The notes beneath the pieces are model-generated. The model worked only from the letters and a program-made list of their open reading frames with translations, did no database searches and had not been told where the DNA came from. A stretch of DNA of 64,000 nucleotides from Amphirosellinia nigrospora (Eukaryota; Ascomycota; Sordariomycetes; Xylariales; Xylariaceae). Made by a program: the position numbers and the translations under genes. The stretch is from contig SCHM01000006.1 of NCBI GenBank assembly GCA_004123355.1, positions 1,054,001-1,118,000 of the forward strand. Direction: 5' to 3'. Shown in pieces: positions 1 through 60,512 of the stretch (position 1 is the first letter of the stretch; each line of letters opens with the position of its first letter).

Positions 1-1099
1 AATAAATAAAATTATAAATAAATATATTAATTAAAATTAAAACTATATAAACTATTATTAAAATAATTAGTTTAAATATATTTATTATAAATTATATATA
101 AATTTTAATTTTTTATACTTTAATAAAACTATTATTTATAAAATAAAATAAACTTTTTAATATTATTTAATTTCGATTAAAAAACCGGACTATAAAAAAA
201 AAGCTATAAAAACTATTATTAAAAAAAAACAATTTAAATAAATATATAAAAAAAATAAAAAAAAATATAATTTGTAAAATTAGCTAAAAAAACTTATATT
301 ATATTTAAAAATATATAATTAATTAAACTAATAAAATTTATATAAATTTAATTTTAATATAAAAAACTATATATTAATTTTAAAAAAAAATAATTTTAAA
401 AAATAAACCGTTTATTAAATAAACTAAACTTTTTTATAAATAATAAAATTTAAAATATATAAAAAAATAAAAATATATTTATATTAAATATTTTTATAAT
501 TTAAAAATATTTAATTAATATATATAAATCGACTATAAAAATATTTAAATAATTATTATTAAGTTAAAAAATAAAAAACCCGGAAAAAAAAATAATAAAA
601 CTTAAAAATAAAAAAAATTTATTATAAAAAAAATATAAACGTTTTAATTTTATTATTAAATATAATATTAAATAAATTAAAAAAATAAAACTTTAATAAT
701 ATATAATATTTTATAAAAAATTTTAAAAATAATATAAAAATATTAAAAAATTTTATAATATAAACTTTAATTTAATTAAACTTTTAATATAATTATAAAT
801 ATAGCTAATATAATATAAAATAACGTTTTTAATAAATATATTTAAAATAATAAAATTATAGCGTAAAAAAAAAAAAATAAAAAAAAAAACATATAAATAA
901 AAAAAATATATTTATATATATTTAAATATTATATTAAACAAAAAAACTTTAAATAATATATAAAAAACTAATATAATAATTTAATAATATAAAAGTTTTA
1001 TAAAAACTTATATTAATAAAAACTTAAAGCAATTTTTTTTTTCGTTAAAAAATAGTTATAATTTTAACCCTAGTTAAATTATTTTTTTTTTAAAAAAAA

Positions 1100-1345
1100 T
1101 AATTATAAATCTATAAGCTTTAATAGCTATTTATTATTAGCTATAATACCTATAATTTTATTTATAGTAACTATTATTTATATAAATATATAACTGCTAT
1201 TTATAATAATATTATAATAAATAAAAATAAATATTAATAATAAATATAGCTATTTTATATAAATATTTAAACAGCTATTTATTATAAACTTAAACTTTTT
1301 TTCTTTTATTTTATTTATAAATTTTTATATATTAAATATATATAA
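1100..1345 (+). repeat. Degenerate inverted-repeat arm, left copy
   Basis: This stretch starts with ATAAATCTATAAGCTTTAAT and runs through a poly-T tract to about 1345. It aligns by eye with the reverse complement of 4062-4318 over essentially its whole length, including the internal ATATAACTGCTATTTATAAT block and the TAAACTTAAACTTTTTTT tract. The two copies face each other and enclose about 2.7 kb, as terminal inverted repeats of a DNA transposon would. Head-to-head insertion of two elements is an alternative. Confidence 0.65.
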
Positions 1346-4061
1346 GGTTTGTTTTTTTAAATATATAAAGCGTAATTTATATAATAAAGATTTTTTTATT
1401 AAACTTTTAAATAAAAATTAAAGTTATATTTTTATAAAAAAATATAGCTTACGTTTTTTAAAAATAAGTTTTAATAAAAGCTAATTGGATATTATTTATT
1501 TATTTTATTAAAGTTTTTTAACTGGATTATTACGCTTTAAAATAAATATTTTAATTTTTTGTTTTTTAATATTATTTCGTTTTTTTTTATTATTATTAAT
1601 ATTACGTTTTTTAATTTTAAAATTATAGTTTTATTAATTAACGTTAATTAATAAGCTAAATATTATAATTATATATTTATTTATTTATTATTAATAATAT
1701 TTTATATTATAATTAAAAAATAATTAAAATAAAAATATTAAATAGTTTATTAATAATTTAATAAAATATTATAATATTTAAATTATAGTTTATTTAAAAT
1801 AATTTATAAATTAATTAATAATAATTATAAATTTATTTTTAAAAATTTTTTTATATATTTTTAATAATAATAAAAAGTTATTAATATTTTTTTTTGTTTT
1901 TATTATTATATTTTATAACTTTTTAATAAAAAAATTTATAATAATAATAAAATTAAATAGTTTAATAATTTTTTTTACGAATTATTAGTTTATATTATAT
2001 ATATATTATTTTTATATTTTTAAAAAATTATTTATAATTAAAAAAATCTATTATTATATAAATATAAATATATAATAAAAATTTTTTATTTAAATATTTT
2101 TTTAAAATTTATTTATAATAAATAATATTTTTAAAAATATTTTTTTAAAAAAAGCTATTTTTTTTAAAATTATTTTTTTTTTTTTATATTTTATAAATTT
2201 ATTTTTTTTATATATTAGCTAGTTTAATATTTAATATATTATATATAATTAAAATAATAATAATTTAAGTTTTTTTATTTATTAAAGTTTAATTTTTTAA
2301 AAAATATTTTTTTAAAATATATTTTTATTAATAATAATTAAAATATTTATTATTAAAAATTAATTATTATATTTTATTAATATTAAGTTTAAATAAATAA
2401 ATAAAATTATTATTATTATTATTGTTATTTAGTTTTAAAATAAAATAAAAAATTATTTAAATAAAAATAAAAAAAAAAAAAAAAAATTATAATAAATTTT
2501 TACGTTTTTTTTTTATAAATTTTATTTTATTTATAATTAATTTTTATTAAATAATAAACTATTTAAAAATAATATTTTATATAAACGTTAAAATTAACGT
2601 TTTTTTTTAAATATTTTAATATAATTTTAATTATTAATCGAAAAATAATTTATTTTTAAATTTTTTTTTTATTTAGTTTTATTAAATTTAGTTTTATTAA
2701 TTAAATAAATAAAAATAGTTTAAAACTTTAAAAATTTAATTAATATATATTAATTAAAACTAAAAAATTAAAATTAGCTTTAGTTTTTTATTATAGTTAA
2801 TATTAATATAAATTTTTTAAAATATTTAAAATAATTTTTAAATTAATAATATATAAAATAATTAATAAAAAAATAAAAAAAAAATTATTAATATAGCTTT
2901 TAATATAAATTTTAATATTAATTATTTTAGCTATATTATTATAAAATTAATTAATAATTATTATTATTAGCTATATTTATATAATTTAAATTTATATTTT
3001 AAATTTAAATTTATTTTTAATTATATTATTATAAAAAATAAATATTAATATTTTAATTATATATTAGCTATTTTTTTTATTATTTAATAAAATAAAAATT
3101 ATTTTATAATAATTTAATAAATTAATTATTTATTAATTTAAAATATTTAAATTATTTTAAATATAATTATATTATTTAATTATTTTTATAGTTTATTTAA
3201 TAATTAATTAATAATTTATTAATTAATTTATTATTAATTAAAATTATTTTTAATTATAAATTAAAAAATATTAATAATATATATTAATATAATATATATT
3301 TATTATAAAAATAATAATTTTATTTTATTTTTTTTAATTAAATAAAACTTTATTTATTTATTTAATTTTTTAATAAATATATATAAATTAATAATAAAAT
3401 AATAATAAACTATTATTAAAAAATATATATTTTTATTTTTTAAAAAATAATAATAAAATTTTTATATATATTATTTATATTAGTTTAATTTATTTTTATT
3501 AAAATTAAACTAAATTATTTTATTATAATATATTATTAATTTAAAATAAAAATTAAACTTAATATTTTTTATTTATAATTTTATATAATTATTAGCTAAA
3601 TATTAAACTATTTAATTAAAATTAATAATATTTATATCGAATTTTTATTTTTTAAATATATAATTATTAATAATATTATAAAATTATTATATTAAATTAA
3701 TTAAAAATAATTAACTTTTATAGCTTATTATTATAATTTTTATATAGTTTAAAAAGCTAAAATAAATATATTTTTTTATTATTTATTAAAGTTTTATTAT
3801 AAAAAACTTATTATTTTAAATATTTAAAGCAAATAAATTTAAAATATTAATAAAAGCTTTAATATATATAATTATACGTATTTATTATTTTAATTTTTTT
3901 TAAAAAATATTTTAATATTTTTAAATTAAATTAATTGTTTAGTTTAATTAAAAAATATTATAAAAATAGTTTTAATATTTTATAATATTATAAATAATTT
4001 ATAAATAATTATATTTTATATATTCGAAAAAATAAAGCTTTAGTATATATAATATATTATA

Positions 4062-4318
4062 TATAAAATTTATAAATAAAAAAAAAAAAAAAAAAAATCT
4101 AAGTTTATAATATAAGCAATTATTTAAATATTTATATAAAATAACTATATTTATTATTAATGCTTGCCTTTATTTACTATAACTATATTTATTATAAATA
4201 GCAGTTATATATTTATTGCAAATAATAATTACTATAAGTAAAGATTATAGGTGCTATGGCTAGTGGTGGGGCATAGCTATTAAAGCTTATAGATTTATAA
4301 CTCTTGTTATAATTTAAG
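4062..4318 (-). repeat. Degenerate inverted-repeat arm, right copy
   Basis: Reverse-complement partner of 1100-1345. It is the least mutated copy: around 4250-4275 it keeps a G-rich stretch (GCTATGGCTAGTGGTGGGGC) that has become A/T in the left copy. It may therefore show the pre-RIP sequence best. The inner part carries the poly-A tract (4078-4097) matching the poly-T tract of the other copies. Confidence 0.65.
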
Positions 4319-5159
4319 CTATTTTTTTATTATAGCTTTATTTAACGTATAAATATATTATTAAATTATATTAAACATTATTAATAAATAAAGCATTTAA
4401 AAAACTTTAATATATAACTAATTAATATAAATAGTTTTAAAAATATTATTTATTATAAATTAAACAATAAAAAAATAAAAATAATTTAAATATTTATTAG
4501 CTTATATAAGTTTTTAATTAATAAAATATTTATATTTACGTTTATATTTATAATAAATAAAAAATTTAATAAAACTATTAAATTTTTAAAACAGGCAAAC
4601 GAGCGGCTAAATAATTATTTTTTTATATAAAAGTTAACTTATTAAAAATCGGAAATAATAATATAATATTTATAAAATAAAAAAAGCCTATATTAATAAA
4701 GCTTAAAACGTTTAGTTTTATTACCGAGTATTTTTATAAAAATACTATTTTATTAAAACTAAAAATAGTTTTAATAATATATATTAATTAATAAAATATA
4801 ACGTTTTAAAACCGCTATAAAATAAAATAATAAAATATAAAAAGCTATATATATATATTATTATTAAATTTAGCTTATAAATAGCTTTAGCGTAAAATAA
4901 CTAAAATAAAAATCGGATTAAAACTATTTAATCGAAAAAAAACTAATTATATATATAAACTAAATATATAAATCGATAAAAAATTTAATACTAAAAAAAT
5001 TTTTCTAATATAAAAAAAAGCCTAGTTTTTTTTTAAAATAATTTAGTTTAATTAAGCTTTTAAAGCATAAATATTAAACTAAATAGCAAAAAAAGCATAA
5101 AATAATAACTATAAAAAATTTCGTTTAATATATTTTATATATTTAAATAATTTTATAAT

Positions 5160-5365
5160 AGTTATAAATTATAATATTTATAATTTTTATTTATAATAAC
5201 TACTATTTATAATAAATAATATTTATAATAAATAAAAGCAAATATAAACAATAAATATATTTGCACTATTAAATTATAAATATATAAATAGCTATTTATA
5301 ATGTAAAGTTAAACTTTTTTTTTTTTTTTTTTATTTATAGATTTTATATATAATATATTAATAAA
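5160..5365 (+). repeat. Third copy of the same repeat, direct orientation
   Basis: In the same orientation as 1100-1345. Shared blocks are TAATTTTTATTTATAATAAC near 5188 and AGCTATTTATAATGTAAAG followed by a long T tract and ATTTATAGATTTTATATA near 5293-5355. A third copy outside the 1100-4318 pair shows that this is a dispersed repeat family, the condition needed for RIP. Confidence 0.5.
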
Positions 5366-8300
5366 AATCAATAAAACTTAAAAACTTCCTAGCTTATATA
5401 TTAAATATAAAAATAAAATATAAAGTACTAAAAATAAAATTAAAAACTAGTTAAACAAAAAAACTTTACGTATATTATTTTATATTAATAAAGCTTATAA
5501 AAATAATTTTACTAGTTTTTTATATAATAATAAATATTTATATTTTATTTTTACGAAAATTATAATATAAAAAAATTTTATTTATATTTTTAAAGTTTAT
5601 TATTTAAGATTTTTATTTTATATATTAAATAAAACTATATTGTTTTAAAACTTAAAAAAAATTAATATATATTTTTTATTTTATTATAAAACTAAAATAA
5701 AACTTATAATAATTATTTGTTTTTTAAATATAATAGTAAATTAATAAAAATAAACAAAAATAAATATAGCTAAAATAATATATTTAGCTTTTAATAAAAT
5801 ATAGCTAAATATATATTTTTTTATATTTTTATTTTATTTATTTTAGTTTTTTATTTTTATAAGCTATATTAAACCTAAAATATTATTTATTATTTTTTTT
5901 GCTTTTTATTTATAAGCAAAATTAATTCGGCCTTTTTAAAAAAGTTAAATATATTTTATAGCAAAAAAATAATTTATAAATAATTTTTACCGAAAATAAA
6001 AATATTAAAACTATAATAATAAACCGAATTATATATAATTTAAATATATTTAAAATTAAAAAAAAATTATAAAACGTTAATTTTATATTAATATTATAAT
6101 TAAATTTAATTATTATAAAATAATATTTATTAAATATTTTAAAAAAACTAGTATTAAAAAAATAAAAATAGCTAAAGCTTAAATTATTAGCGCTATTATT
6201 TAATATTAACGCAAAGCTACTAATTTTAATAGCATAAGGTTTATTAATAAAAACGCCGATAAAACTGCTAATAAAAATAAAACTATTAATAAAAGCACTA
6301 ACGAAGTTTAAAAACTTTTTTTTATATTTCGAACTTAAGTCCTTTAATGCTTAATAATATGCTTTTTTTAATTAGCGCTACTATTAAAAAATAATATATA
6401 TTTTTATAATTTTAAAAAATATCGGCTATTAATATTTATTTTATTAAAGTAATTACTTATAAGCTTTATTTATAAGCAATACTATTAAGCATAAGCTTAA
6501 AGTTTTTAGTTTTTTATAAACGCGTATATTAAGCAATTAAATCTTTTTTTAGGTTTATGTTATTTTTTAAAATATAAAAAACTATACGTTTAATAAAAAA
6601 AAACAGAATTTTTTATATTAAAAATAAAAATATAAAATAAATAGCATAACTAGCTTTATTATTTATTAAAATATATTAAAACTAAAAATATTATTAAATA
6701 TATTTAATAAAATAATTAAAAATTAATATAATTTAGTATTTATACGTAAAAAATATAATTATAAAATTAATAAAACCGTTTAATAAATTAGCTTTTATTA
6801 TTTATATAATTGTTTTATTTTTTAACTTAATAATATTAATATTAAAAAGTTATTAAAACTTTATATAAATTATATTTTAAATAAAATATATATTATAAAT
6901 TATAAAATTAAATAAATTATTTTTTTATAAAAGTTTTAATAAAATATTACATAAAATATATTAAACTATAAAATTAAAAATAAAATTTAATAAATTTAAA
7001 TATAATAAATTTTAAGCTTAAGTTTATTTAATATATAGCTATTAATCGATTATTATTTATAAATAAACGGAGCTTTTTTAATATTTGCTTTTAAATTTAT
7101 TAATAACTTTTAAATCCGAACTTTTTAAAATTATATTTTAAATTTTTATATAAAACTTTTTAGTTATAGTTGTTTAGCTAAATTTTTTTTTTTTAAATCT
7201 ATTTTAAATTTAATTATTTAGTTTTTAATTTTTATTTATATATATTATAATTATTTATAATATTTTTAGCTATAGCTTTTTATTTTATAAATAATATTAG
7301 TTTTATTTATATTTTATTTGCTACTTTTTTATTTAATTAGTTTAATTTTATTTTCTTATTATTATTAATAGCTATAATAATTTTAAATTGTTTAAAAAAG
7401 CTTCGTTTAATATAAATTTATTAAATAAATTTATTATTTATAATATAAATTAGCTTATATAACTATATAGTTTTTTTTTATTTAAAAAGTAAAAAAAAAA
7501 AACTATATTTATATAATAAGTTTTTATATATTATTAAAATATTTAATAAAATTATTAATAATAATATTAAGTTTAAATATTATCGATTAAATAATTTAAT
7601 TATTATTTTTTTAATTTAAATTAATATTATATAGTTATATTTAAATTTTTTATAAAATTATAAAAAGCTAAATTTATCCGATTTTTTATTTTTTTTAGCT
7701 TTATTATATAATTTTTTTAAAAAATAAAAATAATATAAACTTATTTAATTTTACGTTTAAACTTTATTATTTTTTTATTTAAAAAGTAATATTATATAAA
7801 TAAAAATTATATACTAAAAAATAATATTTAATATAATAAAAAGCTTTATAAATTTTATAAAAATAAAATATAAATATTTATTATTATATAAAAACTAATA
7901 AAATTATTTTTATAAACTTTATATAACTATTTAATTATATAAAAAGTTTTTTTTTTTTAATAATATAAATTAGTTTAATAATATATAGTAAATATTTTAG
8001 CGGTTAATATTTATATTTTTATTAATTAATTAATATTAAAAATAAAAATTAAAAACTAATTAAATAAAAAAATTTTTTATATATAGCTATATAATTATAT
8101 AAAGTTATAAAAATAATTTAATAATAAATATTTATTTTATAAAAATTATAATAAAAAGTTTTAATAAAAATATTTTATAAAATACTAAAAAATTATTAAA
8201 CTAATAGCTAATTTATTTTTAAAATAATATTAGCTATTTTTTTAGCTAATATTTAAATTTAAAAAATCTTTAGTTTTATATAATATTTAAAAATAAATTA

Positions 8301-10028
8301 GTAATATTTATTTTTTAAAACTTATAAAAATATTTTTTTAATTTTAGTATTTTTTTATTAAAATTTTAGCTTAATTTTATAGCTATCGTAAATTAAAACT
8401 TTATTATTTATTTTTTTATTACCGATTTTTTATTAAAATTATAAAGTTTATTATTAATAAAATAAATTTTAATATATTTTTAATTTAATAAAAGTTTTCG
8501 ATTTATTAAAAGCGCTTTTAAAAAAAAATATTTAAATATTATATATATTTATTTATTAGCAGTATTTTCGGAAGTTTTCCAAAAATCTTTTAGTTTATTA
8601 TATAAAATATTTAAAATAAATAATTTTTTTAGTTTAAATAAAATAACTAATTATTAATTTTATATATTTTAAATTATTATTTTTTTTAAGGTTATTATTT
8701 GTTTTTTTAATAATTTAAATAAGAAAAGTATAATATTTATAATATTTTTTTATTTTTATTATTTTGCGAACTTTAAAATTATATTATTAGTGCTATAATT
8801 AAGTTTAAAATAATTTTTAGCTAATATAAACTATTTTTAGTTATTTATAGCTTATAGCGTATAAATTTTTTATTTTTTAAAAATAAAAAAAATTTTTTAT
8901 TTTAAGTTTTTTTATAAATAGCTAATTTAGCGTTTATAAAATTATATTAAATAAATCAATTAATGTTTAAAAAAATTTAAAAATTAAATATATAATTATT
9001 ATATTTTTTATTTAAAAAACTTAGTATATATTTTTTTTATTTATAAAACAATATTAATTTATTTATTTTATATATTTATATTTTTTATAAAAAAATATTT
9101 CGTTAGTTTAATATTAATTTTTGCTTTTTTTAAAAAATATATTATATATTTTAATATAAAGTTATAAGTTTAACTAAGTTTATATTTATTAAAAAATTTT
9201 AAAGTAAATTATATTACTTTTTTTTTCTATAGCTTATAATATAATAAGCTTAATAAAAAATTTTTATAAAACTAAATTATTATATAATTAATAATAATAA
9301 TTAATAATTTAAACGTTATTATTATTAATTATTTATTAAAAAAAATATATAACTGCTAAAAAAACAAATTAATAAACGTTTTTTTTTTTTAATAAAATAT
9401 AAAGCTTAAACAATAAATATTATAATAGCTATAAAAAAACGCGCCGTATTTAATTATTTTAACGTTAATATATATTATTTTTAGTTATATAAAACTTGCT
9501 TTTATAAAACTATATTAAAGTAAAAAAATTATATAATATTTTAAATTTCGATAAAAAAACTAGCTAAACGTTTAACTATAAATAATTATTAACGTATATT
9601 AATAAAAAATTAATAATAATTATACTATTAAGCGGACTATTTATTTAAAGCATTATTTTTATAATATATTACATATAAATATAATTATTTCGTTTTATTA
9701 CTTTTATTCCGGGGTAAATAATAAACTGCGGTTAGTTTTATATAATATAGTAGTATTTGTTTTTTTTATAGTATTAAAGGCAAACTTTTAGTAATAAAAA
9801 AAATATTTAAAATATATATATTACGTTAGTATATTTAACGCTTGTTAATTTATATAATAGCTCTAAAAATATGTTTTTAAAGCTAAGATCTTACCAAAAA
9901 TAGCAAATTGTGCTTCCGGGAGCTTAAGAAACCTATTTAGTAACTTTTCCTAGCATCCTCGTGCTGTAGCCCGTTTTCCGGGCATCACTAAGTAATGAGA
10001 TTAATGTTGGAACCGAAGCCCTCTTGGC

Positions 10029-36353: not shown

Positions 36354-39217
36354 ATGGCTGAAGATATTCTGCGATCGGTTGATGCCGGTAATGAGAAGCC
36401 TGGCACGCAAGCTATCCCTCTAGTCGATCTCCTCCACGTTCTCTCCGGGGTAGGAGCTGCCACCAATACATCATCCACAGAAGTAAAAGATCTGGCGGCT
36501 AGATTGGCCGCAGAATACTCCTCACCGGGACAAGACTCTCAATCGGCTACTATTACCATCAGCAACGATAGCCACTATGATGTCGCCCCAGCACGTTCAT
36601 TGCGTGAATGGGGCAATATTATTGCTATTGTCTTGAAGACTGAGAAAGGCCGGCATATCGCTGAATTGTCTCTTGCAGTTGCGTTTCTGCGCCGGACTAG
36701 GCGTAAACAGCTCCAAGAGACAGAAGACGACCTCACATATACCTGGGACCTAATCCATGAAGCTCTCACTAATATGGAAAGCATTCAATGCATCGCGGAT
36801 CCGAGGGCTTCTTAGCCGCTCCGCTCTGTGCCTTGCGAGATACCAAGCAAGAAGAGTCGTTTTATCTGCACATATATCTGCCTCATGAAAGACGAGGGGA
36901 TTTTAATTATCCAATCCGTTCTCACAAAGCTTCCATTCAACGATGGGTCTTTGTCGGGCAGGAAAAACAGATATCGTACGGGGTTAACTTCAACCCTAAC
37001 CTGATACATGCTACTCATGCCTTATACGAGCTCTCAGAAACCGGTTTAAACGGGAAAGACACTAGCACACCACAAGATGAATACCAGCCAAATGGCACCA
37101 TTGTGAATACTGGAAGTTTGGTTCGCCTAGATCAGACAATTTCTGCAACTCATGCTCGTAACACAAACTACAACATTACTAGTGGCATGTTCCATGTCAT
37201 CGAGACTGAGCCAGATACTCTCCACGCTACCCTGGTCTTCTTTGATGCGCCACGTGGTTCTAGCATTGAGGATGGTTTTGCCGGTTCAAAGGATCTAAAG
37301 CCTTACACTCTAAGCCATGACCAGGAAGTTGGAATGACAGCTAGATATCTAGTTGAACTAGCTCATCTCGTCCGAAGATGGGAGATTCAAATGTCTCAAG
37401 GGCAGAAGTATGCGAATACGGCGGATTGGGAGAACTCTTTGAGGTGTTTCAATACAGCGCTTAATCTGTGCGATCATTTCGAGACTTCACAACTTCCAAA
37501 CCAAACCCACTACAGACAAGCCGTCCTTGGCAAAATTGGAGGAGCTTATAGACGTTTTGGAGATATGAACAAGCCGAAGACTTCTTAAAGCGAGCGCTTG
37601 AGACAAGAAAAGAAGCTAGTCCTCAATATGTTGATATTACCGGCGAGCTCTCCGTAGTCTATCGCTCTATGAACCTGCTTAATGCAGCAAAAGAAGCTGT
37701 GGAGTTACAGTATACCACGGCCAAAGATCTCAATCTTCGACGCGAAGAGCTTCGCGCAATCGGAAATCTTGGCATGATTAACTACCAACTATTTCTTAAC
37801 CACAGAGAACAAGAGTTACTGAAACTGGCTATTGACCAGCTTCATGAGCGTATAAGAATCGCCCGACACATACGCGCAAGCGTTAGGTCCCAGGAAGCGA
37901 GTACGAACGCAGAATACATCAGATATGCTTTTATTAGCGAGGCCATTGCCTTTGCGCGGCTCTCACTTTGTTTTACAGCAAGTGGCGACTTGGCAAAAGC
38001 AATAGAGGCTGGGTCAAGCTCTCTAGAAATCAGTCTAGCTGAAGACGAGCCATTCTTAATTGCCATGGCTCGTTTCTTCTATGGGCGGGCGCTATTGAAG
38101 AATGGACAACCTAACGAGGCCAAACAGCAGTTTACCTGGCCAGAGAACCGCTTAACCCCAGCCATGGCTTTCTGCAGAGAAGCCATCGATGAGCATCGGG
38201 ATATCTTCGGGAGTTAGTGGAAGCTGGTATAAACATGAGTCGCACTGACAACAATGGTTATACCGCCTTGGATTACGCGGTTTTTAGCGACGATCCAGAA
38301 TCAACAAGTATTGTGCTTGAGGGAATACGCAGAAACTTACCAGCTATGAGTATTGTAGAGGCCCAGAAGAATCTGGATGCGTTGCATCGAGAGTCAAAGC
38401 TACGAAAAAGCTACAGGCAGCTGTTCCAGGAGAAATTACGGCAAGCTCTTCTGCATAGCCACGGTAGCGAAGGGTTAGAGAGGCTGCGGGAAACATACGC
38501 GCACGCTCTCGCTACGGACCCAGACAAGCGGACTCACTTCGACGCATTCAAAGTCATACCGTATAAGGACTTCGCACAACACAAGAGGCTCCCCCATTCA
38601 AAGGAAAGATTGGCTCGTCAGTATTCCCCGAGCGACGACTCGAAAGAATTTGTTCTCTTCTTCTCCTATAGATGGGTCAAAGACGAGTTCGGGGTATCAA
38701 GACCAGATGATAGAAACAACACCGGGTATGAAAGAATGATAGCCGCTGTAGAGGAATTCTTGCATCTTCACCCGAGTGTTGACCGCGAACGGCTGGGAAT
38801 CTGGCTAGTGAGTACACAATCCCGGCTAATGACAACTAGTAGGATGCTGAGCTTTTTTAGGACGTTGCTTGTATCAATCAGGATGACACAGCATCTGGAG
38901 TTGCCGCTCTACCTATCAATCTGGCACAGTGCAATGCTGTGATTAGCTTAGTTGAAGGTGATTATTATGACCGCGCCTGGTGCTCTGTAGAAGTACTCAT
39001 GGTGCAGACACTGAGAAGGGCATACAATTTGCATTTATGGTATCAGCACGTGCCGACCGACCTAGAAGAGGGTCGGAAGGGGCGAAATGCGGCCAAGTAT
39101 ACTTTACAAGAAGGGCCAATGGAGCAAGAAGTCAATGTAGGGGATAAGGAGTTGACTTATGAGGATGACCGGCCTAAGGTACTATTCCTGGAAAGGCAAA
39201 CGAAGCTCTTAGCGTAA
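36354..39217 (+). CDS. TPR protein with ankyrin-like unit and C-terminal TIR-like domain
   Basis: About 930 residues over two exons; the intron 38808-38860 (53 nt, GTGAGT...CTAAT...TTTTTTAG) is clean. The N-terminal ~150 residues are of unknown type, followed by a beta-rich middle part. TPR-like helices are at about 37395-38130 (GQKYANTADWENSLRCFNTAL; FYGRALLKNGQPNEAKQQF). One ankyrin-like unit, LVEAGINMSRTDNNGYTALDYA, lies near 38215. The C-terminal domain (about 38640-39060) has FVLFFSYRW, GIWLDVACINQDD, CNAVISLVEGDYYDRAW and WCSVEV. This order matches a TIR fold: first strand FxSYRx, GIxxxxD, then WCxxE carrying the NADase glutamate. It also recalls HET domains (IWxDxxCINQ). One-base losses lie at 36804-36807, 37571-37575 and 38207-38210. 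Probably an intracellular recognition or cell-death protein; inferred. Confidence 0.72.
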
Positions 39218-39403: not shown

Positions 39404-40764
39404 TCACAGGCATAAAACCCGACTGACAGCCTCTTGTAACGAAATACTCGATACTGTAGAACATGGATTGGACGTATGTAGATTTTTTGGGTCTATTTTA
39501 TCAAGAGGCAAGTCATCTCGAATAGTTGTTCGGATATTGGACACACTATTCGTATATTTACCGTGACATGCTCGGTCCTTTTTGCGTATCAAATCATACA
39601 AGGACCAGTAGGGTATCAAGTAGAGGCTGACAATCCACAGATTCCAAATCCTGTATGTAGTCTTATCGTCTTCACGGCCCGATACACGATACTCCTTATT
39701 GCTACGATATACGCCAAAGGCGTAGTAATAAGGTATCCAAACCAACCGCAATCCCAAAAATAGGGACACAGTAAACCCCAGATGGCCATAAACGTAGCAG
39801 TAATATGGCGAGTTGAACTGTCGCCGATCTGAAGTGGTAGGGACCGCCGCCCTCTGAGGGCGTCGCCTTCCTGGTCTTCCATATCTTGAGTTTGTGTGGT
39901 AGTCAGAAGCACGAGCGTCAGTAGTATAACCCATGATTCAAGGGAGTGAGGATTCAGCTGTGTAAAACCACTGCTTTTCGACCCAAAGATTAAGGCTTCA
40001 TTCTGTGCAATCTCTAAAGCTCCGAGGCCAAAGAGCATATATGCGAGAGCAACCAGCAAGTTCCGAACAAACGGGTTCGCATCGGAGCCTCCTAGGGAAT
40101 TATACCAAGTCCCTAGAGTTTTATATCAACCTTATCATGCCTTTCAAACTTTCTGAAGGAAATATACACACCCAGAGCCATGATGCTCGCACTCCAGCGA
40201 AGTGGACCAACCTCGTAGCTTATGAGAGCAGCCTTCGCGTAGAAAAAGAGCATTGTGTAATGAGCTTGGCGAAGAGTACATCGATTTGATGGGAGCGGGC
40301 GCCACGGCTTATTAAGTTTGTCTTCGGCAACGGCGTTGGGCTGTTGTTGGTTGTGGATATCAAGGGGGAGGAGGTTGATCTACAAGAAAAAAAGTTATTA
40401 GTTAGCCGATAAATGATGTATCGTGAAAGAGCGCCGAGATTCAATTAGATAGAGAACCTCAAACTGTCTTCATTTGATTTCGAGTAATCAATAAATACTT
40501 ACCCAAACCCAGAACATGACCATCGGGATTCGGTAAAGAATCTCGCGAGCTTCCCCTTTGTCGGAAACCTCTAGATTTAGTTCAATTTGCGAGAGAGCCG
40601 TGAGGATGCCAAAAAGCGTCTGAGGGAAGAGGATGGTTTTTAGGTCGCTGAAAGTGAAAAGCCAGGGAATGTAGATGATACAACGAGCTCCTAAGAGTTT
40701 GATTTCTAGAGCCCAAGCTAGGGCTTAAGACATCAACCCCTAAAGATGATTGTCCTGTCATCAT
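39404..40764 (-). CDS. UbiA-superfamily membrane prenyltransferase or terpene cyclase
   Basis: A polytopic membrane protein of about 350 residues. Exon 1 (to 40503) has PWLFTFSDLKTILFPQTLFG. Exon 2 (from 40379) has the first Asp-rich motif region LDIHNQQQPNAVAED followed by NKPWRPLPS. After an intron ending at 40113 comes YNSLGGSDANPFVRN and the second Asp motif DMEDQEGDALRGR with LPLQIGD, then the last helices. The UbiA fold binds prenyl diphosphates through these two Asp-rich motifs and Mg2+. In fungi the superfamily includes aromatic prenyltransferases of meroterpenoid routes and the Fma-TC sesquiterpene cyclase of fumagillin biosynthesis; sequence alone does not decide. One base is missing near 39671-39680. 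The 5' end is uncertain: the ATG at 40764 needs a frame correction or another exon. Confidence 0.78.
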
Positions 40765-44067: not shown

Positions 44068-47000
44068 TCAATCAAACACGTCGGTCGCATATCGCACATT
44101 CCTCAATCCCTCCCACCATTCCAACACTTTCTCCTCGGTCGTTTCCTCGCCGCGATCCTTGGCCTTTTTCACGATCAACTTGACGACCTCGGTCTTGACA
44201 CCCTCGCCGATGGCGCGCGAGCCGCAGATGTATAACCTGGCATTCTGGTCCCACAGGGCCACTACCTCGTCGTAGTGAGTACGGATGAGGTCCTGGACGT
44301 ACTTGGCGCCGTTGGATTTCTCGGTGGCGCGGCTGTACGCCCGCAAGACCGTCACGGCGCCGGCCTTCTCCCACTTGGCTAGTTCATCGGCGTATAGATC
44401 GTCGCGGCCGGGGCTGCGGCATCCGACCAGCAGGAGGGCTGGGGCGAGCTTGCGGCCTGCGGCGATCATCTCGGCGCGCTCTTGCATGAAGCCGCGGAAG
44501 GGGCTGATGCCAGTTCCTGCGGCGATGCAGATTACGGGGGTGTTCTCGGGGTTTTGCGGCAGATGGAACGCGGCGTGTGACTGTCTCACGGCGACGTGTA
44601 GCTTATCTCCCGCCTCCAGGGAGTCTAGATATGACGAGGCGACACCCACGTGGGTACCCAGCCCGGATTTCGATGGCGCCTCGAGCACGGCGAACGTCAG
44701 GGTGACGTGAGAGGTGTTCCATAGCGGAGAAGAGGATATGGAACTGCGGTCTGTCAGCGAGAATGCACTTCGTCTGTCGCGGGACGGATAATTGACTTAC
44801 TATTGTCGGACACGCATGGGTGGAAGCATGGCGAGGAACATTCCTAGAGGGAGCTCGACGTCGGGGAATTTTTCCAGGAGATCAAGAACCGAGATGCGCT
44901 TCTCCAAAACCTCCGGGTAATCCTGGTCTTTGTACTTCTTCAATGCGTCCTTGTCTTGTTGTTTAGTTGCAATCTCCGACAGAGTAAGAATATTCTATTT
45001 CAAGCGTTAGTGATTATTTCTACCGGTGGAATCATTTTACTTTACCCTCTTCGTTGCTGGTTGGGCCAATTCGACGTATGCGCTGAAGACACTCTGCGCT
45101 GGCATGGAAGTCTGCGTGGGCAGCGGTGTATTGGCCGCACCTGAAATTGTGATATGGGAGTCCCATGCCAGCTTAAAGCGCCGCATCACGCGCTGTACCA
45201 CCGACTTTGGGTTGATTGGCAAAACTGCCAGATAGTCGCCCGACCGATAGGTTTGCCCGCTCGGGAGAGCGATCTCAATGTGCTTCTTGGCTGGCTCGCC
45301 GTCGGCCGTTAGTTTGCGAGTTTCCACCACAAATGCCTCCATGACGTCTTGGCGAAGGGTGGAGGTCCGTGGGCTTGTAATCTCCACGCTCAATCCTGCA
45401 GACTGCGAGTCATTCGAGTCTTCAGTGCCATATTTTTTATGGATGGCTGGCCAGAGGACGTTATCTTCCCATGTTTCAAAGTCGGTGAAAGTATCAGTCG
45501 ACCCAGCATCTGAGAGCCCCATATCTGCAATACGGAAAGCACCGTTCTCCTCGAGCTTGCTATCAACGAGTTTGGGGATACGGTGGAATGTCTGTGCCCA
45601 ATCATGATGGCCAACCCCAAAGACAGCGTAATCCACTCCCTCTAGCATCTTCTCATCTTTGGAACCGGCTAGCCAGGAGCAGAAGAGAGCGGCATTATCT
45701 GGAGGCTCTCCTTCGTAGGATGCTGTAATGGCGATCACGGGCTGGTTCTTGGGGAGTGCGCCGTTCGCCGTATCTAAACAGTCTACCTTGTCGACAGTAA
45801 AGCCATGGCGAGAAGCGTCGCTAGCTAGCCGTTGAGCTAATGACTCGCAAGTACCACTATTGCTGCCATAGAGAACCGTAATCTTCTGTCCCTTTCCGAC
45901 AGTCGCAGACGATTCCTCCGTATGCAACTTGGATGATCCCTCAGACGACCCTCTACCAGCCAGACGGTGTTCTAGTTGGGTTGGTGACATGCCATCACGA
46001 ATAATGGCTCGCATGAGGAAATTATCAGGCTTGATGGTCAGTGTTTGCTTGATAGCTAGATTATAAGTGGGATCGTGCATCACGAAATTGAAGTTCTGAA
46101 AGAGCATGGCCATAGCTAAGATCGCTTCTTGCATGGCGAACGGTCTACCAATGCAGGCCCGAGCTCCATTTCCGAACGGTTTCCAAGCATTCTTGGGTAA
46201 TTTATTGAACGGCTCATCTAGCATTCTCTCCGGCTTGAACTCCTGAGCATCATCACCCCAGACAGCTGGGTCAAGATGAGCACGGGCAAGAAACAGTGCA
46301 CACGGCTCATCTTTAGCGACGGGGTATCTCCAGCTAATAGCTGATCTTCTTTAGAGACCACACTAAATACGGAGATAGGCGAATCAACTCGCAGGGTTTC
46401 ACGTAGAACCTAACAAGGAATCAGCCAAACTCTTTAGTATAGCATAAGCAACTACATACCGCCGTGAGGTAAGGCAACTTAGAGAGATGCTCAACGGTAA
46501 TTGGATCTTTTCCGATGACTTCATCAACCTCCTGCTGTACCTTCCGATATGTGTCCGGTTCTTTAGTAGCCGATAGAAGGCAAAGCTCAAGGTTCCGGAA
46601 GTGGTCTCATGTCCAGCACTACCGCTCTCGGTTAGTCATTGCTATTTAAAACTAATTCATGGGAGTCCTGGAAGCTCATTGACACTCTTGTCTCCAAAGG
46701 AAAAACTGTGCTCTAAAAGTTGCCAAAACAGGAAGAACATGGCTCCGAGGATTACTTACATGAGGAATGTCAGTAGATTGTCGATGATACTGGCATCGGT
46801 CATGTGTTTCCCAGTCTTTGGGTCGACGCCATTGATCATTGCGTTCAAAAGATCTTTGCGGTCATCAGGATGTTTCTTTCTCGATTCAAGGACTTCTTGG
46901 GCCGTATTTCTCAGGATTGAGATATCCTTCCAGTACTTGGCGTCGTCAGTTCGGTAAAAGAAAGACGGAAGTACTCGACTCGGTCGTTTTCCAGACTCGA

Positions 47001-56192: not shown

Positions 56193-58748
56193 GGTATTCA
56201 ATGTGCAGGTGTTTATACAATAACAATTGTCCGTTTAGCTAGCAGAAATGATGAACTTTTACGTGCAGGATTTTGGAAATATCTGGCTGCGGATAAGCAA
56301 GAATAATGGAGACACACACATGCAACGGCGGGGTTCCGACGATACCTTGCTTTCTCATCGCGAGCAGCGGGTAAATGCTTTCCCTCAAAAATGCGCAACA
56401 ACGCTGGATAGTCCTCAAAACTCTACCAAATCAAACCTGGTGCGCATCGTGTCTGATCACAGACTAACCGTACCAATTTCTACACAGCACAGCGCCGTAG
56501 AGAGATGACCAATGCCACTTCTGATGCGCTGCGACAAGCATTGCATCATCCGTGCGATTCAACTTCAAGGGCCCGAGGGCCGGCATTGACCTTCGGCAAT
56601 TACCGGGGCTAAGCCAGCGGTTCGGAGAAATTTGATCTTCAGTTACTCGCATAACATGGATACGCAGATCCATCTTCTTTTAAGATCTCGTCTCCTCCAT
56701 CTGGGGTTCTACTCGTCCCTTATGCTCTGCGTACCTCATGCATGCTGTAAGCTTTTCGGAATCAGGGACCATGAACCGACGCGCCTAGTGCCAGAGATAC
56801 GGGCTGGCGTGCCTCTATATAACGTACTTACTTAAAGTAAGTATTACAACAAAACGCTTCGGGCAATACCTATGGTGCTAGAAATCCCGCCGACATACCA
56901 GAGGCGAATTCTCGGACTTTCAAAGATAAAGGATAAGGGATTAAATTCCCATATTCTCCATCGCCTGATTATTCGAGATCTAACTAGTCTAGTCTACCTA
57001 GGTACTTAACCTAGGTAAGTAGTCTAGTGTAATAAGGGCCGAATCTATATGTACGGCAGCACGCCGCAACCTGGTCCCTGGGACGAGGGCTGGCGGCTCG
57101 GGATCCCGATCCTCCAGCGCCCTCAGGCCGCTGTCTAGCGCGCAGGACCCTAGCGGCTAGGCGGTCAAATCCCCGACGCAGCTACCTCTTTTGACACTTC
57201 AGCTCGAGCCTCACTTACACGTTCCCCCACGAAAGGATGCGCTCCTTTTTTCTCCCCAAACTGTTGAATAGAGTATGAGCTGCTGGTTGCATTCGCGCTA
57301 AAAGGCGTCGCTATCTCCCGCTGTGCTGTTCTTACCATACGATCGGCTGGGCATACCCAGACCGGTCCAGCGTCTCGGGTCGGTCAGGAGCACGTAGGCA
57401 CACACTTCATCACAAGGAGCGCGCTGGTCGATTAGCCTCACTGCGTGCTAGTGAAGATACGTTCTTGCTGTTTTCCCTCAGCTAACCACGTAGGATGCGG
57501 AATCGCCCAGCGCTGGGGGCGACGTATACGGACCATTCATGGCTGGTGTGGAATCGTAAACTGCTTCAGCTCGTCGGTAACGGCTCGCCTAGCTTGTCAA
57601 ATCGGTAACCGGCGACTGATGGGCCGCTGGTCTAGACTAAGAGCGGCCCCCCTGTGCTGGGGTTTACAGTACTGGGATGGTGACCGGGAATATCTACGAC
57701 TAACGGGAACTGCATACCCAATCATGGACAATTCAACCTCTTTGAAGAGGAACGTATAATCCGAGGCGTTCGTTTCGCCATCTCTCGGGGCTTCCGACTT
57801 GGTGTCTCGCGACGAACTTGGACATCTCAACGGCCCTTATCGTGCTCAGGTGATATCTAGACGTTTCAACGCTAGCTAGGTCATGGTTTCTAGCGCGAGT
57901 AGTAAATGTTGGGGAAGTTGGGGTCAGATGAAGCATACGATAGGATTGAGGCCATTTTCACCCCCACCTCTGTCACGGTCGTTGACAGCAGGCCTCTTGT
58001 TAGGCCAATGGTGCAAACACTTGGTATTTTGGCTTGGATGAAGAATAGAAATCAGGTGTTTTCGAGAAGTTGCGGGATGAAGTAATGAGTATATCGTACA
58101 TCTCAGCTCTTCAAATGCCGACTATATGTCTACTATTACGTTAGTTTAACAGCTTCGTGAAGAGGCTAGTTATTTGACGAGGAATTTAAAGAATTAAAGT
58201 GCACGACACTATCTTATCCAGTACGGATGGGCATGAAATCACATACTACATTGGTAGTCGACGACTGTTGTTGTATACCTATCATCCGTTGTCTCCCAGT
58301 AGAGCGTAATAGTCTCAGCTATACTATTAACTTGACAGTAATAGGACCGCAATCAAAGCTCACACATACTTCACGCGTAAACCCAAAGTAGTTTAAAAAA
58401 ATACTTTGCTAGATTCCTAACCTTCCCAGCCCTTTGACGCTAGGACCGCAAGAGGAAAGCTGACTAGCTGCTATATACAAGATATGTGCTACTCTTTGTG
58501 TGCACGGATGCATTGCGTTGTAACGCCCATCGCGATACAGACCACGAAGCGACTAAGCTTTGTATCTCTGTCTTGATGCAACGGACCATATATATATATA
58601 TATCCCATTCATGCAATGATTTCCTAACCGAATCGGTTGACGTCCATCGTCGCCATCTTACACCAGCTCTCACGTAAAGAGGGATAGAAATCTATCTCCT
58701 TGTCAAGATACCCGCTGCTTATTATGCTTGGGTTTTCTACCCCATTGA
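56193..58748. other. Intergenic, nothing recognised
   Basis: About 2.5 kb. Frames at 56632-56835, 57445-57759 (+) and 57597-57936 (-) carry no motif. An (AT)n microsatellite lies at about 58591-58606. It includes the promoter of the hydrolase gene and the 3' flank of the DUF1479 gene. Confidence 0.4.
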
Positions 58749-60512
58749 TCACCTCTCCTTCTCCCTCCGCGTCTGATTCGGCGTAGCCGACGACGAAGAC
58801 GAAGCCGCAGACGTAGGCGTGACGACCTCCTTTTCCTTCTCCCTCGACGTAGGCACGGGACTGCTCGCCCGCGTAGGCATGTAGAAGTCATACCGGTCCG
58901 GGAAGAGGATGATGTTGGCGAGACGGACGACCTCGGTCTCGGCGCGGGAGCTCGACGACGCCGACACCGGGTGTCCATGCCACCACTGTCCTCCATCTCT
59001 ACATCCTTCTCCGTCGGCGAACTCGACTTCGGCGTCTCGTCCGCCGCCAACGACTTCCCGCCGCTCAATGTCCACGGCGATAGACCCATCGCCCGTAATC
59101 CCTCCTCGCCTCCGACTTCGCGGATCTCTTTTTCGCCCAGTCGGCCTGTATGCGGTGCCTCGCTGCCCAGCCCCGTCCCCGTCGAGTCAAAATCCGGTCC
59201 TGGATGGCCACGCAGGAATGCCTTACGTTGACGGGCGAGGAAGAGCGCGTTAGTCTGCGTTAGCGGTGCAGCGGGTGAGTAGACGAGCATAGATGTATTT
59301 GAGCCCGACTCGGACGGTGTGGCGTCGCCGCCGCGGTAGTTGGTGTTGGAGAACTGGTACGCCTGATCCGGGTGCCAGATGATGTAATCGCCGGCCTGAA
59401 GCGTCGGCGGCGTGACGAGGCTCTTGTCGAGCTGGAGATGCGGGTGCCACGCCGCCGTCACGCGCTGTGCGTGGCCCGGCACCGCGCCGTGTATTATCGT
59501 CGTCTGCTCCTTGTCGAGCGCCCAGTTGGCCGGGTCGAGGTACTGCGCCCACTTCTCGGGGCCGTCGCTTGCCTCGGGGGCCGGCTCCTTGGGCGAGAAG
59601 AAGGGGCGCAGGAGGAAGTAGACGGTAGACAGTTTTGGTGAGGGAAGCAGACGGATCATGCCTGGCTCGACTACCGTCAGTGCAAGTATGCCCTGGAACA
59701 TGCGCATCATGGAACATGCACCAGCGCCATTATACAGGTCCGACGTAGCGTTGACGCGGCCTGCCGGATCCCACGCGTTATACGCCTCCCAATTGCCCTT
59801 AAAAATCTCATCGTAAAGACCGCAACGCCCATAACCGTCTAATTCCCACCGCTCCAAACTTCCGTTATCCACCTGCGCAATCGATGCGTTCGATGCCGCC
59901 GCCGCCGCCGCGATGAGGCTGTCCTCGGGCGAGACGGGCGCTGCCGCGACGCCGTTGACGGTGATGATGCCGTTGTTGGTGGATTCTATTCTAATACGAT
60001 CTGCGTATGTAATGGGAAACCGCGTGGCGAGCCGGTCGTCGTTGCAATTCCACAACGACATGGCGAACCGCTGCGCCTGCAGCATGTTGGGGTATGCACG
60101 CGAGCGCACTTGCGCCGGCGTCCAGAAGAAGTCGAAACAGGTCGGGTCCTGCGCCGGGGGCGGCTTGAAATCGTGCTTCGTCTCCAGGTATTTCTTGGTC
60201 TCTTCCACCCACTGGTCAGCGTTCTCGGCGGCACGACGCCGCGGATGACACCGATTCCATGGCGTTTCAGACTAGCTTCAAAGGGCGTCACCTTGGTCGT
60301 GTCGTGGATGTCGGTAAAGTCAATCGAGGGGATCAGTTCTGTGCGGCGTTCGTCTATGTACTTTATTTCGTCGCGCAGTGCGACGATCAGGCGACTCCAA
60401 GACGCCTCGAGTGCGGATTCGTGCCCTGCCACTAGCCGTTTCTTCAGACTGGCAAATCGCGAAGGGAGAGGGACCGGCTGGGTGCCGTAAAAAGATAAAA
60501 CTGGGGCTCCAT
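58749..60512 (-). CDS. DUF1479 family Fe(II)/2-oxoglutarate-type dioxygenase (YbiU-like)
   Basis: Read from the ATG at 60512. The N-terminal part has ALRDEIKYIDER, ELIPSIDF and RHGIGVIRGVVP; then WVEETKKYLETK, DFFWTPAQVR, MSLWNC, RFPITYADRIRI, ERWELDGYG, GNWEAYNAWD, MMRMFQG, GDYIIWHPDQAYQ (metal-binding WHxD region) and SMLVYSPAAPLT. After a polar linker the last part has WHGHPVSAS and IILFPDRYDFYMP. This is the DUF1479 fold, a large double-stranded beta-helix family with members in bacteria and fungi. Substrate unknown. One base is short near 60452, 60226-60232 and 58981-58985; each correction joins conserved blocks. No intron evident. Upstream lies a repeat-rich, GC-rich segment. Confidence 0.82.

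What the first reader, a model, noticed from the sequence alone, without database searches (positions are those of the whole stretch)
36354..39217. TPR/ankyrin-like protein ending in a TIR-like domain
The last ~150 residues carry FFSYRW, GIWLD, CNAVISLVE and DRAWCSVEV in the order of TIR strands and helices, with a glutamate at the WCxxE position used by NAD-cleaving TIR domains. CINQDD also recalls HET domains. TIR domains are rare in fungi and the pairing with TPR and ankyrin units is receptor-like: sensor repeats in front, effector at the end. The N-terminal ~400 residues match nothing I know. This is the best candidate for a little-described recognition system in the window.
Basis: partly seen in the sequence, partly recalled or inferred. 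Interest (0 to 1): 0.75.

Follow-up and report, generated by a model that had tools for sequence, protein, structure and literature searches.

The report
Fungal TPR protein with HET-like tail
A fungal gene joins protein-binding repeats to a compact relative of the HET domain, which fungi use to trigger cell death, and distant relatives of that compact domain turn up in a few bacteria, so it may help connect fungal HET domains with the TIR immune domains of other organisms.

Summary
The gene is real: about 937 codons, one canonical 53-bp intron (38808-38860), TPR and ankyrin units confirmed. Chaperonin genes of the same assembly are broken in the same way, so assembly error is likelier than decay. 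The C-terminal domain is not recognised as TIR by any library used. Its nearest known relative is the fungal HET domain: Pfam HET sub-threshold (E 0.016); four-sequence profile against HET 94% probability, against at most 2% in 50 shuffles. It lacks the long insert of HET domains: the distance from the conserved Asp to the conserved Glu is 43 residues, against 41 in 10 of 11 bacterial TIRs and 86-145 in 40 HET domains of this genome. Three bacterial relatives (Verrucomicrobiales, a 70% GC IMG/VR contig, a Pseudanabaena plasmid) share the skeleton S[HY]RW ... WxDxxCxxQ ... RxWCxxE. Two lie beside a TPR gene and one near a ThsB-like TIR gene. Best reading: a repeat-sensor protein with a compact, TIR-length HET-type effector, probably in regulated cell death or immunity. 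Fold, NAD cleavage and fungal distribution could not be tested.

The parts
36354..39217 (+). whole gene (about 937 codons after splicing), frame broken three times in this assembly
36354..36815 (+). piece 1, N-terminal region; no Pfam match at E up to 5
36773..37588 (+). piece 2, N-terminal region of unknown kind; weak first TPR near its end (TPR_2 E 0.18)
37552..38217 (+). piece 3, TPR region (TPR_12 1.5e-7, 31.9 bits over the cut-off of 30.1)
38205..38300 (+). ankyrin unit, Ank_4 8.1e-5 (23.3 bits over the cut-off of 22.7)
38631..38807 (+). first half of the compact HET/TIR-like domain: block 1 (FFSYRW) to the first part of block 2 (GIWL)
38808..38860 (+). intron of 53 bp, GTGAGT ... CTAATGAC ... 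TTTTTTAG
   Evidence: the joined domain aligns with a bacterial protein encoded without an intron across this point
38861..39214 (+). second half of the domain: DVACINQDD (rest of block 2), DYYDRAWCSVEV (block 3 with the conserved Glu), C-terminal tail

Best explanation
The locus is one functional fungal gene whose frame breaks are assembly errors. Its protein has an N-terminal region of unknown kind, a TPR block, an ankyrin unit and a C-terminal domain of about 165 residues. This domain is a compact, TIR-length member of the HET/TIR superfamily, nearest to HET but without the HET insert. Inferred mechanism: the N-terminal and repeat regions bind a ligand or partner and hold the domain inactive; binding brings several copies together; the clustered domains then start regulated cell death or an immune signal. 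The most likely chemistry is cleavage of NAD+ or a related nucleotide using the conserved Glu, as in catalytic TIR domains. Shown here: gene structure, TPR and ankyrin, kinship to HET, conservation of the Glu in four sequences, TIR-like spacing, bacterial relatives. Inferred: ligand sensing, oligomerisation, cell death, enzymology.
For: Domain against Pfam HET E 0.016. Domain against a HET profile from 40 own-genome sequences: 16.5 bits, best of 2200 shuffled or reversed controls 10.4. Four-sequence profile against HET: probability 94.3%, score 47.8; 50 column shuffles at most 2.1% and 18.3. W-hydrophobic-D-x-x-C-I-N-Q-D occurs 6 times in the whole genome as uninterrupted DNA (0 in the reversed-pattern control), all 6 at HET places listed. 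D-to-E spacing 43, against 41 in 10 of 11 TIRs (the eleventh was not measurable) and 86-145 in 40 HET domains. Bacterial relative L078: BLASTP 4e-15 over the whole domain (E-value for a single comparison). TPR genes beside two of three bacterial relatives and TPR units fused in the fungal gene. HET domains induce cell death and are held to be remote TIR relatives (PMC4986451, PMC10890737, PMC12881547: passages read).
Against: No library match of the domain reaches its cut-off. No usable structure was predicted. The profile link to TIR itself is not significant. The HET match covers blocks 1 and 2 securely; block 3 is covered only by the global or greedy alignments. The L078 core alone is barely above its shuffles on the HET profile (10.2 bits, best of 1000 shuffles 9.1; hhalign probability 15.5%). 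The Q of the HET RxWxxQE block is missing. The other two bacterial relatives match the window domain only at 1e-4 and 4e-4 in single comparisons. TPR neighbours were not tested against the background frequency of TPR genes, the Pseudanabaena TPR gene is convergent, and a TPR_12 search of the L082 record gave no match at E 0.001 (the gene is TPR by TPR_2). No expression data and no relatives from other fungi were available. The activity columns for HET in the 2025 review read 'ND', although another passage of it speaks of NAD+ hydrolase activity for the HET/TIR module (PMC12881547, passages).
Confidence: 0.55

Rival explanations
1. Non-enzymatic adaptor: the domain is HET/TIR-like but signals by assembling with other HET or TIR-like domains of the cell, which carry the death activity. 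The Glu is structural.
For: At least 151 HET matches in this genome could be partners. Dyrka 2014 proposed that HET domains recruit other HET proteins (PMC4986451, passages). The Glu is also frequent in some TIR groups irrespective of reported activity (PMC7075850, passages).
Against: The Glu lies in the best conserved block and is kept in a bacterial relative found without demanding it.
Confidence: 0.27
2. Decaying pseudogene: the three frame breaks are real and the protein is no longer made.
For: Three frame breaks in one gene; no second copy found in the genome with pieces 2, 3, 4 and the last exon (piece 1 not searched).
Against: 6 of 10 TCP1/Cpn60 places, which include essential genes (recalled), are broken the same way. 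The intron keeps intact signals and codon usage moderately favours the assumed frame.
Confidence: 0.1
3. A canonical TIR NADase that happens to carry HET-like letters, i.e. a true TIR family member of the kind found at the N-termini of some Pezizomycotina NLRs.
For: TIR-like spacing and Glu position. TIR-like, SEFIR-resembling effectors are reported in Pezizomycotina NLRs (PMC9815663, passages).
Against: No TIR, TIR_2 or SEFIR match listed in Pfam; profile comparison with 11 TIRs below shuffled controls; HET is clearly nearer.
Confidence: 0.06
4. Chance resemblance: the motifs have no common origin with HET or TIR.
For: Single-sequence library scores are weak.
Against: Whole-domain match to a bacterial protein at 4e-15 and 94% profile probability to HET with clean controls.
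Confidence: 0.02

Closest known systems
HET domain, Pfam PF06985 (Podospora HET-E/D/R, BH; Neurospora TOL, PIN-C, HET-6)
   Same: S[YH]xW block, W[IVL]DxxCIxQ block, terminal RxWxxxE block, fungal host, presumed role in regulated cell death
   Different: 32 residues between blocks 2 and 3 instead of 75-134 (n = 40); Q before the Glu missing; below the Pfam cut-off (16.0 against 22.5 bits); C-terminal position, whereas the HET-E and BH domains are N-terminal (PMC9815663, PMC10890737, passages)
TIR domains (PF01582, PF13676), including ThsB of Thoeris
   Same: Asp-to-Glu spacing (43 against 41), order of motifs, conserved Glu; a ThsB-like TIR gene lies near the Verrucomicrobiales relative
   Different: no library match; profile comparison not significant; WxDxxCxxQ is HET-like, not TIR-like
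Fungal NLRs with HET or TIR-like effectors and TPR/ANK repeats (PMC4986451; PMC9815663; PMC12258605, passages)
   Same: repeat sensor combined with a HET/TIR-type effector
   Different: no NACHT or NB-ARC match in any piece, effector at the C-terminus, repeats in front
Uncharacterised bacterial proteins L078:2557-3372, L082:5875-8172, Pseudanabaena WP_126390537.1
   Same: same three blocks and Glu, TIR-like spacing in L078 (43)
   Different: no Pfam match at all, so no TPR or ANK detected in them; longer spacing in L082 and L085 (52, 54); the L082 protein runs to the contig end

Membership tests
HET (PF06985) | Pfam gathering score | tested here: not met
   16.0 bits against 22.5, E 0.016
HET (PF06985) | blocks S[YH]xW and W[IV]DxxCIxQ | tested here: met
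   FFSYRW and IWLDVACINQDD; profile probability 94.3% over these blocks
HET (PF06985) | RxWxxQE block | tested here: inconclusive
   RAWCSVE: R, W and E present, Q absent; 40 of 40 own-genome HET domains, chosen for a full-length match, have QE
HET (PF06985) | long insert between blocks 2 and 3 | tested here: not met
   32 residues, HET 75-134, n = 40
HET (PF06985) | induces cell death when expressed | not testable with these tools
   needs a bench test
TIR (PF01582/PF13676) | library match | tested here: not met
   none listed with the limit at E 10 (filters drop most above 0.1); a PF01582 search of the whole genome also gave 0 matches
TIR (PF01582/PF13676) | profile similarity to bacterial TIRs | tested here: not met
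   score 12.0, 100 shuffles up to 17.1; the aligner chose the expected register
TIR (PF01582/PF13676) | spacing from the strand-B Asp to the conserved Glu | tested here: met
   43 against 41 in 10 of 11 TIRs
TIR (PF01582/PF13676) | alpha/beta TIR fold | tested here: inconclusive
   AlphaFold of the second half alone, without an alignment, pLDDT 33
TIR (PF01582/PF13676) | NAD+ cleavage dependent on the Glu | not testable with these tools
   bench assay
NLR | NACHT or NB-ARC domain | tested here: not met
   five pieces scanned against Pfam at E up to 5, none
TPR protein | TPR match over the cut-off | tested here: met
   TPR_12 31.9 bits against 30.1
Ankyrin repeat protein | ANK match over the cut-off | tested here: met
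   Ank_4 23.3 bits against 22.7; only one short stretch

The most novel reading that the evidence does not exclude
The domain belongs to an unnamed, TIR-length branch of the HET/TIR superfamily shared by fungi and scattered bacteria. In bacteria it works with a separately encoded TPR protein as a two-gene defence or self-recognition module; in this fungus both are fused with ankyrin and an unknown N-terminal region into one receptor. It would represent the compact state from which the HET domain arose by insertion.
Probability: 0.25. Interest if true: 0.72.

Novelty: new variant of a known kind. Interest (0 to 1): 0.5.

Why it matters
How fungal HET domains kill is stated to be unknown (PMC10890737, passage) and their TIR-like activity still to be demonstrated (PMC10197012, passages). 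A compact domain with HET-type motifs and TIR-type spacing, encoded without an intron in bacteria, would be a convenient protein for a direct NADase test and for solving a structure that links the two families. The TPR association in bacteria and fungus also points to a testable sensor-effector pairing.

Tried and rejected
Structure prediction of piece 2 and of the second half of the domain: unusable (pLDDT 35 and 33), so no fold search was run.

Paralogue searches of the own genome with pieces 2, 3, 4 and the last exon: none beyond itself, apart from weak matches (E 0.05 and 6.4, 4.2). The RAWCxxE pattern gave 14 matches against 11 in the reversed-pattern control. Read in frame, three lie in HET domains (L027, L028, L032), one is the gene itself (L033), and the other 10 showed nothing like the domain. 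In one search I had read the five minus-strand matches on the wrong strand; one search repeated them correctly. The codon test had the same fault in its training set and was repeated.

Close-relative searches of viral contigs and genome contigs: 1 and 21 stretches, none confirmed; with the two-sequence alignment 18 stretches in viral contigs, none confirmed. Two-motif patterns in viral contigs: 0 in four scans. One search gave three stretches: L080 and L081 are near-identical frames without the domain, L082 is real; one search found only L082 again. Of 387 genomes of the phylum of L078, drawn from a larger group, only L078's own genome has the domain by the two-row profile. tblastn: with L078 none in plasmids or phages; with the window domain four weak chance hits in plasmids, best E 0.4; with L082 one in plasmids (Pseudanabaena) and none in phages; with the Pseudanabaena protein only itself in plasmids and none in phages.

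NCBIfam, PADLOC and PDB: nothing convincing for the domain. PHROGs: nothing for the second half of the domain, nothing for the L082 protein, one weak match (E 0.021, unknown function) for L078. Rfam: nothing in the window. An idea that piece 2 holds a cupin fold was mine from memory and found no support.

Background frequency of TPR genes near random bacterial genes was not measured.

Full report
What is there. The window is bases 1054001-1118000 of contig 8 of a 48.1 Mb genome in 11 contigs. On the plus strand, ATG 36354 to stop 39217 holds four long open stretches in shifting frames plus a last exon. One gap is a canonical intron, 38808-38860, of 53 bp. The other three transitions overlap, leave no room for an intron and each correspond to the loss of one base.

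Are the breaks real? I used the chaperonin family TCP1/Cpn60 as a yardstick; CCT subunits are essential in fungi (recalled). The search gave 25 matched pieces at 10 places. By the rule 'gap under 45 bases and change of frame', 6 of 10 places carry 10 breaks, 8 of the 10 in the direction seen three times in this gene; one of the 10 (C1:6115572/6115918, with a long overlap) is ambiguous. Genes of this assembly are therefore often broken by single-base loss, and the three breaks here are best read as assembly errors. Codon usage supports the frames moderately: with stops penalised, first of six in 5 of 5 pieces for both training sets; with stops ignored, 3 of 5 with the chaperonin set and 5 of 5 (one a tie) with the HET set (replacing the score).

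Anatomy. Piece 1 has no Pfam match and piece 2 only a marginal TPR at its end. The PDB sequence search of piece 2 gave only insignificant immunoglobulin hits. Piece 3 is TPR and piece 4 begins with an ankyrin unit. No NACHT or NB-ARC appears in any piece, so this is not an NLR in the usual sense.

The C-terminal domain. Against Pfam the spliced domain gives one match, HET, at E 0.016 and 16.0 bits, below the cut-off of 22.5. I fetched 40 of the 151 HET places of the same genome, chosen for full-length matches without stops, and built a profile. The domain scores 16.5 bits; the best of 2200 shuffled or reversed controls scores 10.4. A pattern for W-hydrophobic-D-x-x-C-I-N-Q-D, as uninterrupted DNA, occurs six times in the genome and never as the reversed control; all six lie at HET places. 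The window's own copy is split by its intron and is not among the six.

Bacterial relatives. One two-motif pattern scan of bacterial and archaeal genomes gave a single hit, L078, a Verrucomicrobiales metagenome-assembled genome. Its 271-residue protein matches the window domain over its whole length (BLASTP 4e-15 as a single comparison, 26% identity over 184 columns). Genes around it look bacterial by eye (only three of its proteins were scanned). About 0.7 kb away on the same strand, with one small unknown gene between, lies an HTH-TIR gene that matches ThsB (TIR_2 4.6e-14, PADLOC ThsB 2.2e-17). A block-3 pattern in viral contigs gave three stretches of which one, L082, is a relative. Its protein runs to the contig end, matches the window domain at 1e-4 and L078 at 3e-4 (single comparisons), and the next gene on the same strand is a TPR protein (TPR_2 1e-6, over the cut-off; a TPR_12 search of the record gave nothing at E 0.001). 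The L082 protein then found a third relative on a Pseudanabaena plasmid at 2e-9; that protein matches the window domain at 4e-4. The neighbouring gene there is annotated and confirmed as TPR, but is convergent. None of the three bacterial proteins matches a Pfam family. The domain is rare in the sample: 1 of 387 genomes in the phylum of L078, namely its own.

What the four sequences show. Fifteen columns are invariant, among them S, R, W of S[HY]RW, W, D, C, Q of WxDxxCxxQ, and Y, R, W, C, E of YxxRxWCxxE. Two of the three bacterial sequences were found with patterns that required part of this; the Pseudanabaena one was not, and still has RGWCFAE. The profile of the four matches the HET profile at 94.3% probability and score 47.8; 50 column-shuffled controls reach at most 2.1% and 18.3, the reversed profile 0.2%. 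Subsets do less well: the window domain alone 84.2%, window plus L078 76.9%, L078 alone 15.5%, the three bacterial ones 89.2%; L078's core scores 10.2 bits on the HET profile, hardly above its best shuffle of 9.1. The global alignment of the four spans the whole HET domain at similar strength. Against 11 TIR domains (the L078 neighbour and 10 of the 24 plasmid records), the score of 12.0 lies below the best of 100 shuffles, 17.1. The aligner did place the expected TIR register, but this is not statistical support. The HET profile does not match these TIRs either.

Spacing. From the Asp after the conserved Trp to the conserved Glu the window domain has 43 residues, L078 43, L082 52 and Pseudanabaena 54. 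Ten of 11 TIRs have 41 (the eleventh, L098, was mis-measured because its Asp is Asn), and 40 HET domains have 86 to 145. The domain thus combines HET-type motifs with TIR-type length.

How it probably works. HET domains are reported as sufficient to induce cell death, with chemistry unknown or not determined, and as remote TIR relatives (passages of PMC10890737, PMC12881547, PMC4986451, PMC10197012, PMC9815663); one passage of PMC12881547 speaks of NAD+ hydrolase activity for the HET/TIR module. The likeliest reading is that the N-terminal and repeat regions sense a partner and the compact C-terminal domain then signals or kills, perhaps through NAD+ cleavage by the conserved Glu. That last step is inference; the frequency of the Glu does not necessarily follow reported activity in TIR groups (PMC7075850, passages). 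A purely adaptor role is the main rival.

Novelty. A repeat protein with a HET/TIR effector is a known kind of thing in fungi, in the passages I read with the effector at the N-terminus (PMC4986451, PMC9815663, PMC12258605, PMC10890737). New here, as far as the nine paper searches show (listings read, passages of seven papers read), are the compact HET variant at the C-terminus, its bacterial relatives and the shared link with TPR proteins. Fungal and protist databases were not available, so relatives there may be common and already deposited. I recall similar 'SHRW' proteins in protists but no call shows it.

Noticed in passing
window 1-9900: Extremely AT-rich block (roughly 3-15% GC) with many weak AT tandem arrays, changing to about 40% GC or more near 10,000; looks like a regional centromere or its edge.
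   Followed up: partly
whole assembly (chaperonin places): Frequent single-base frame breaks: 6 of 10 TCP1/Cpn60 places affected. Gene calls on this assembly will often be split or called pseudogenes wrongly.
   Followed up: yes
window 44068-46350 (-): P450, flavodoxin, FAD- and NAD-binding parts in neighbouring frames: a self-sufficient P450-reductase fusion (CYP505 type, recalled), possibly frame-broken too.
   Followed up: no
window 39404-40125 (-): UbiA prenyltransferase piece (1e-11) overlapping a second frame with a weak TLC match, convergent with the finding.
   Followed up: no
window 58703-60268 (-): Gig2-like family protein, 7.6e-109.
   Followed up: no
L078 2557-4862 (-): In a Verrucomicrobiales genome the compact HET-like gene, a small unknown gene and a ThsB-like HTH-TIR gene stand together on one strand between ORFs of the other strand, like an inserted defence cassette.
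   Followed up: partly
L085 3998-6558: Pseudanabaena plasmid: compact HET-like gene next to a TPR gene, with VWA-domain and AAA ATPase genes on its other side.
   Followed up: partly
G000 contigs 7, 8 and 10: HET matches also occur on three contigs of 1.3-1.5 Mb, including at least eight on contig 8, which carries the window (lengths).
   Followed up: no
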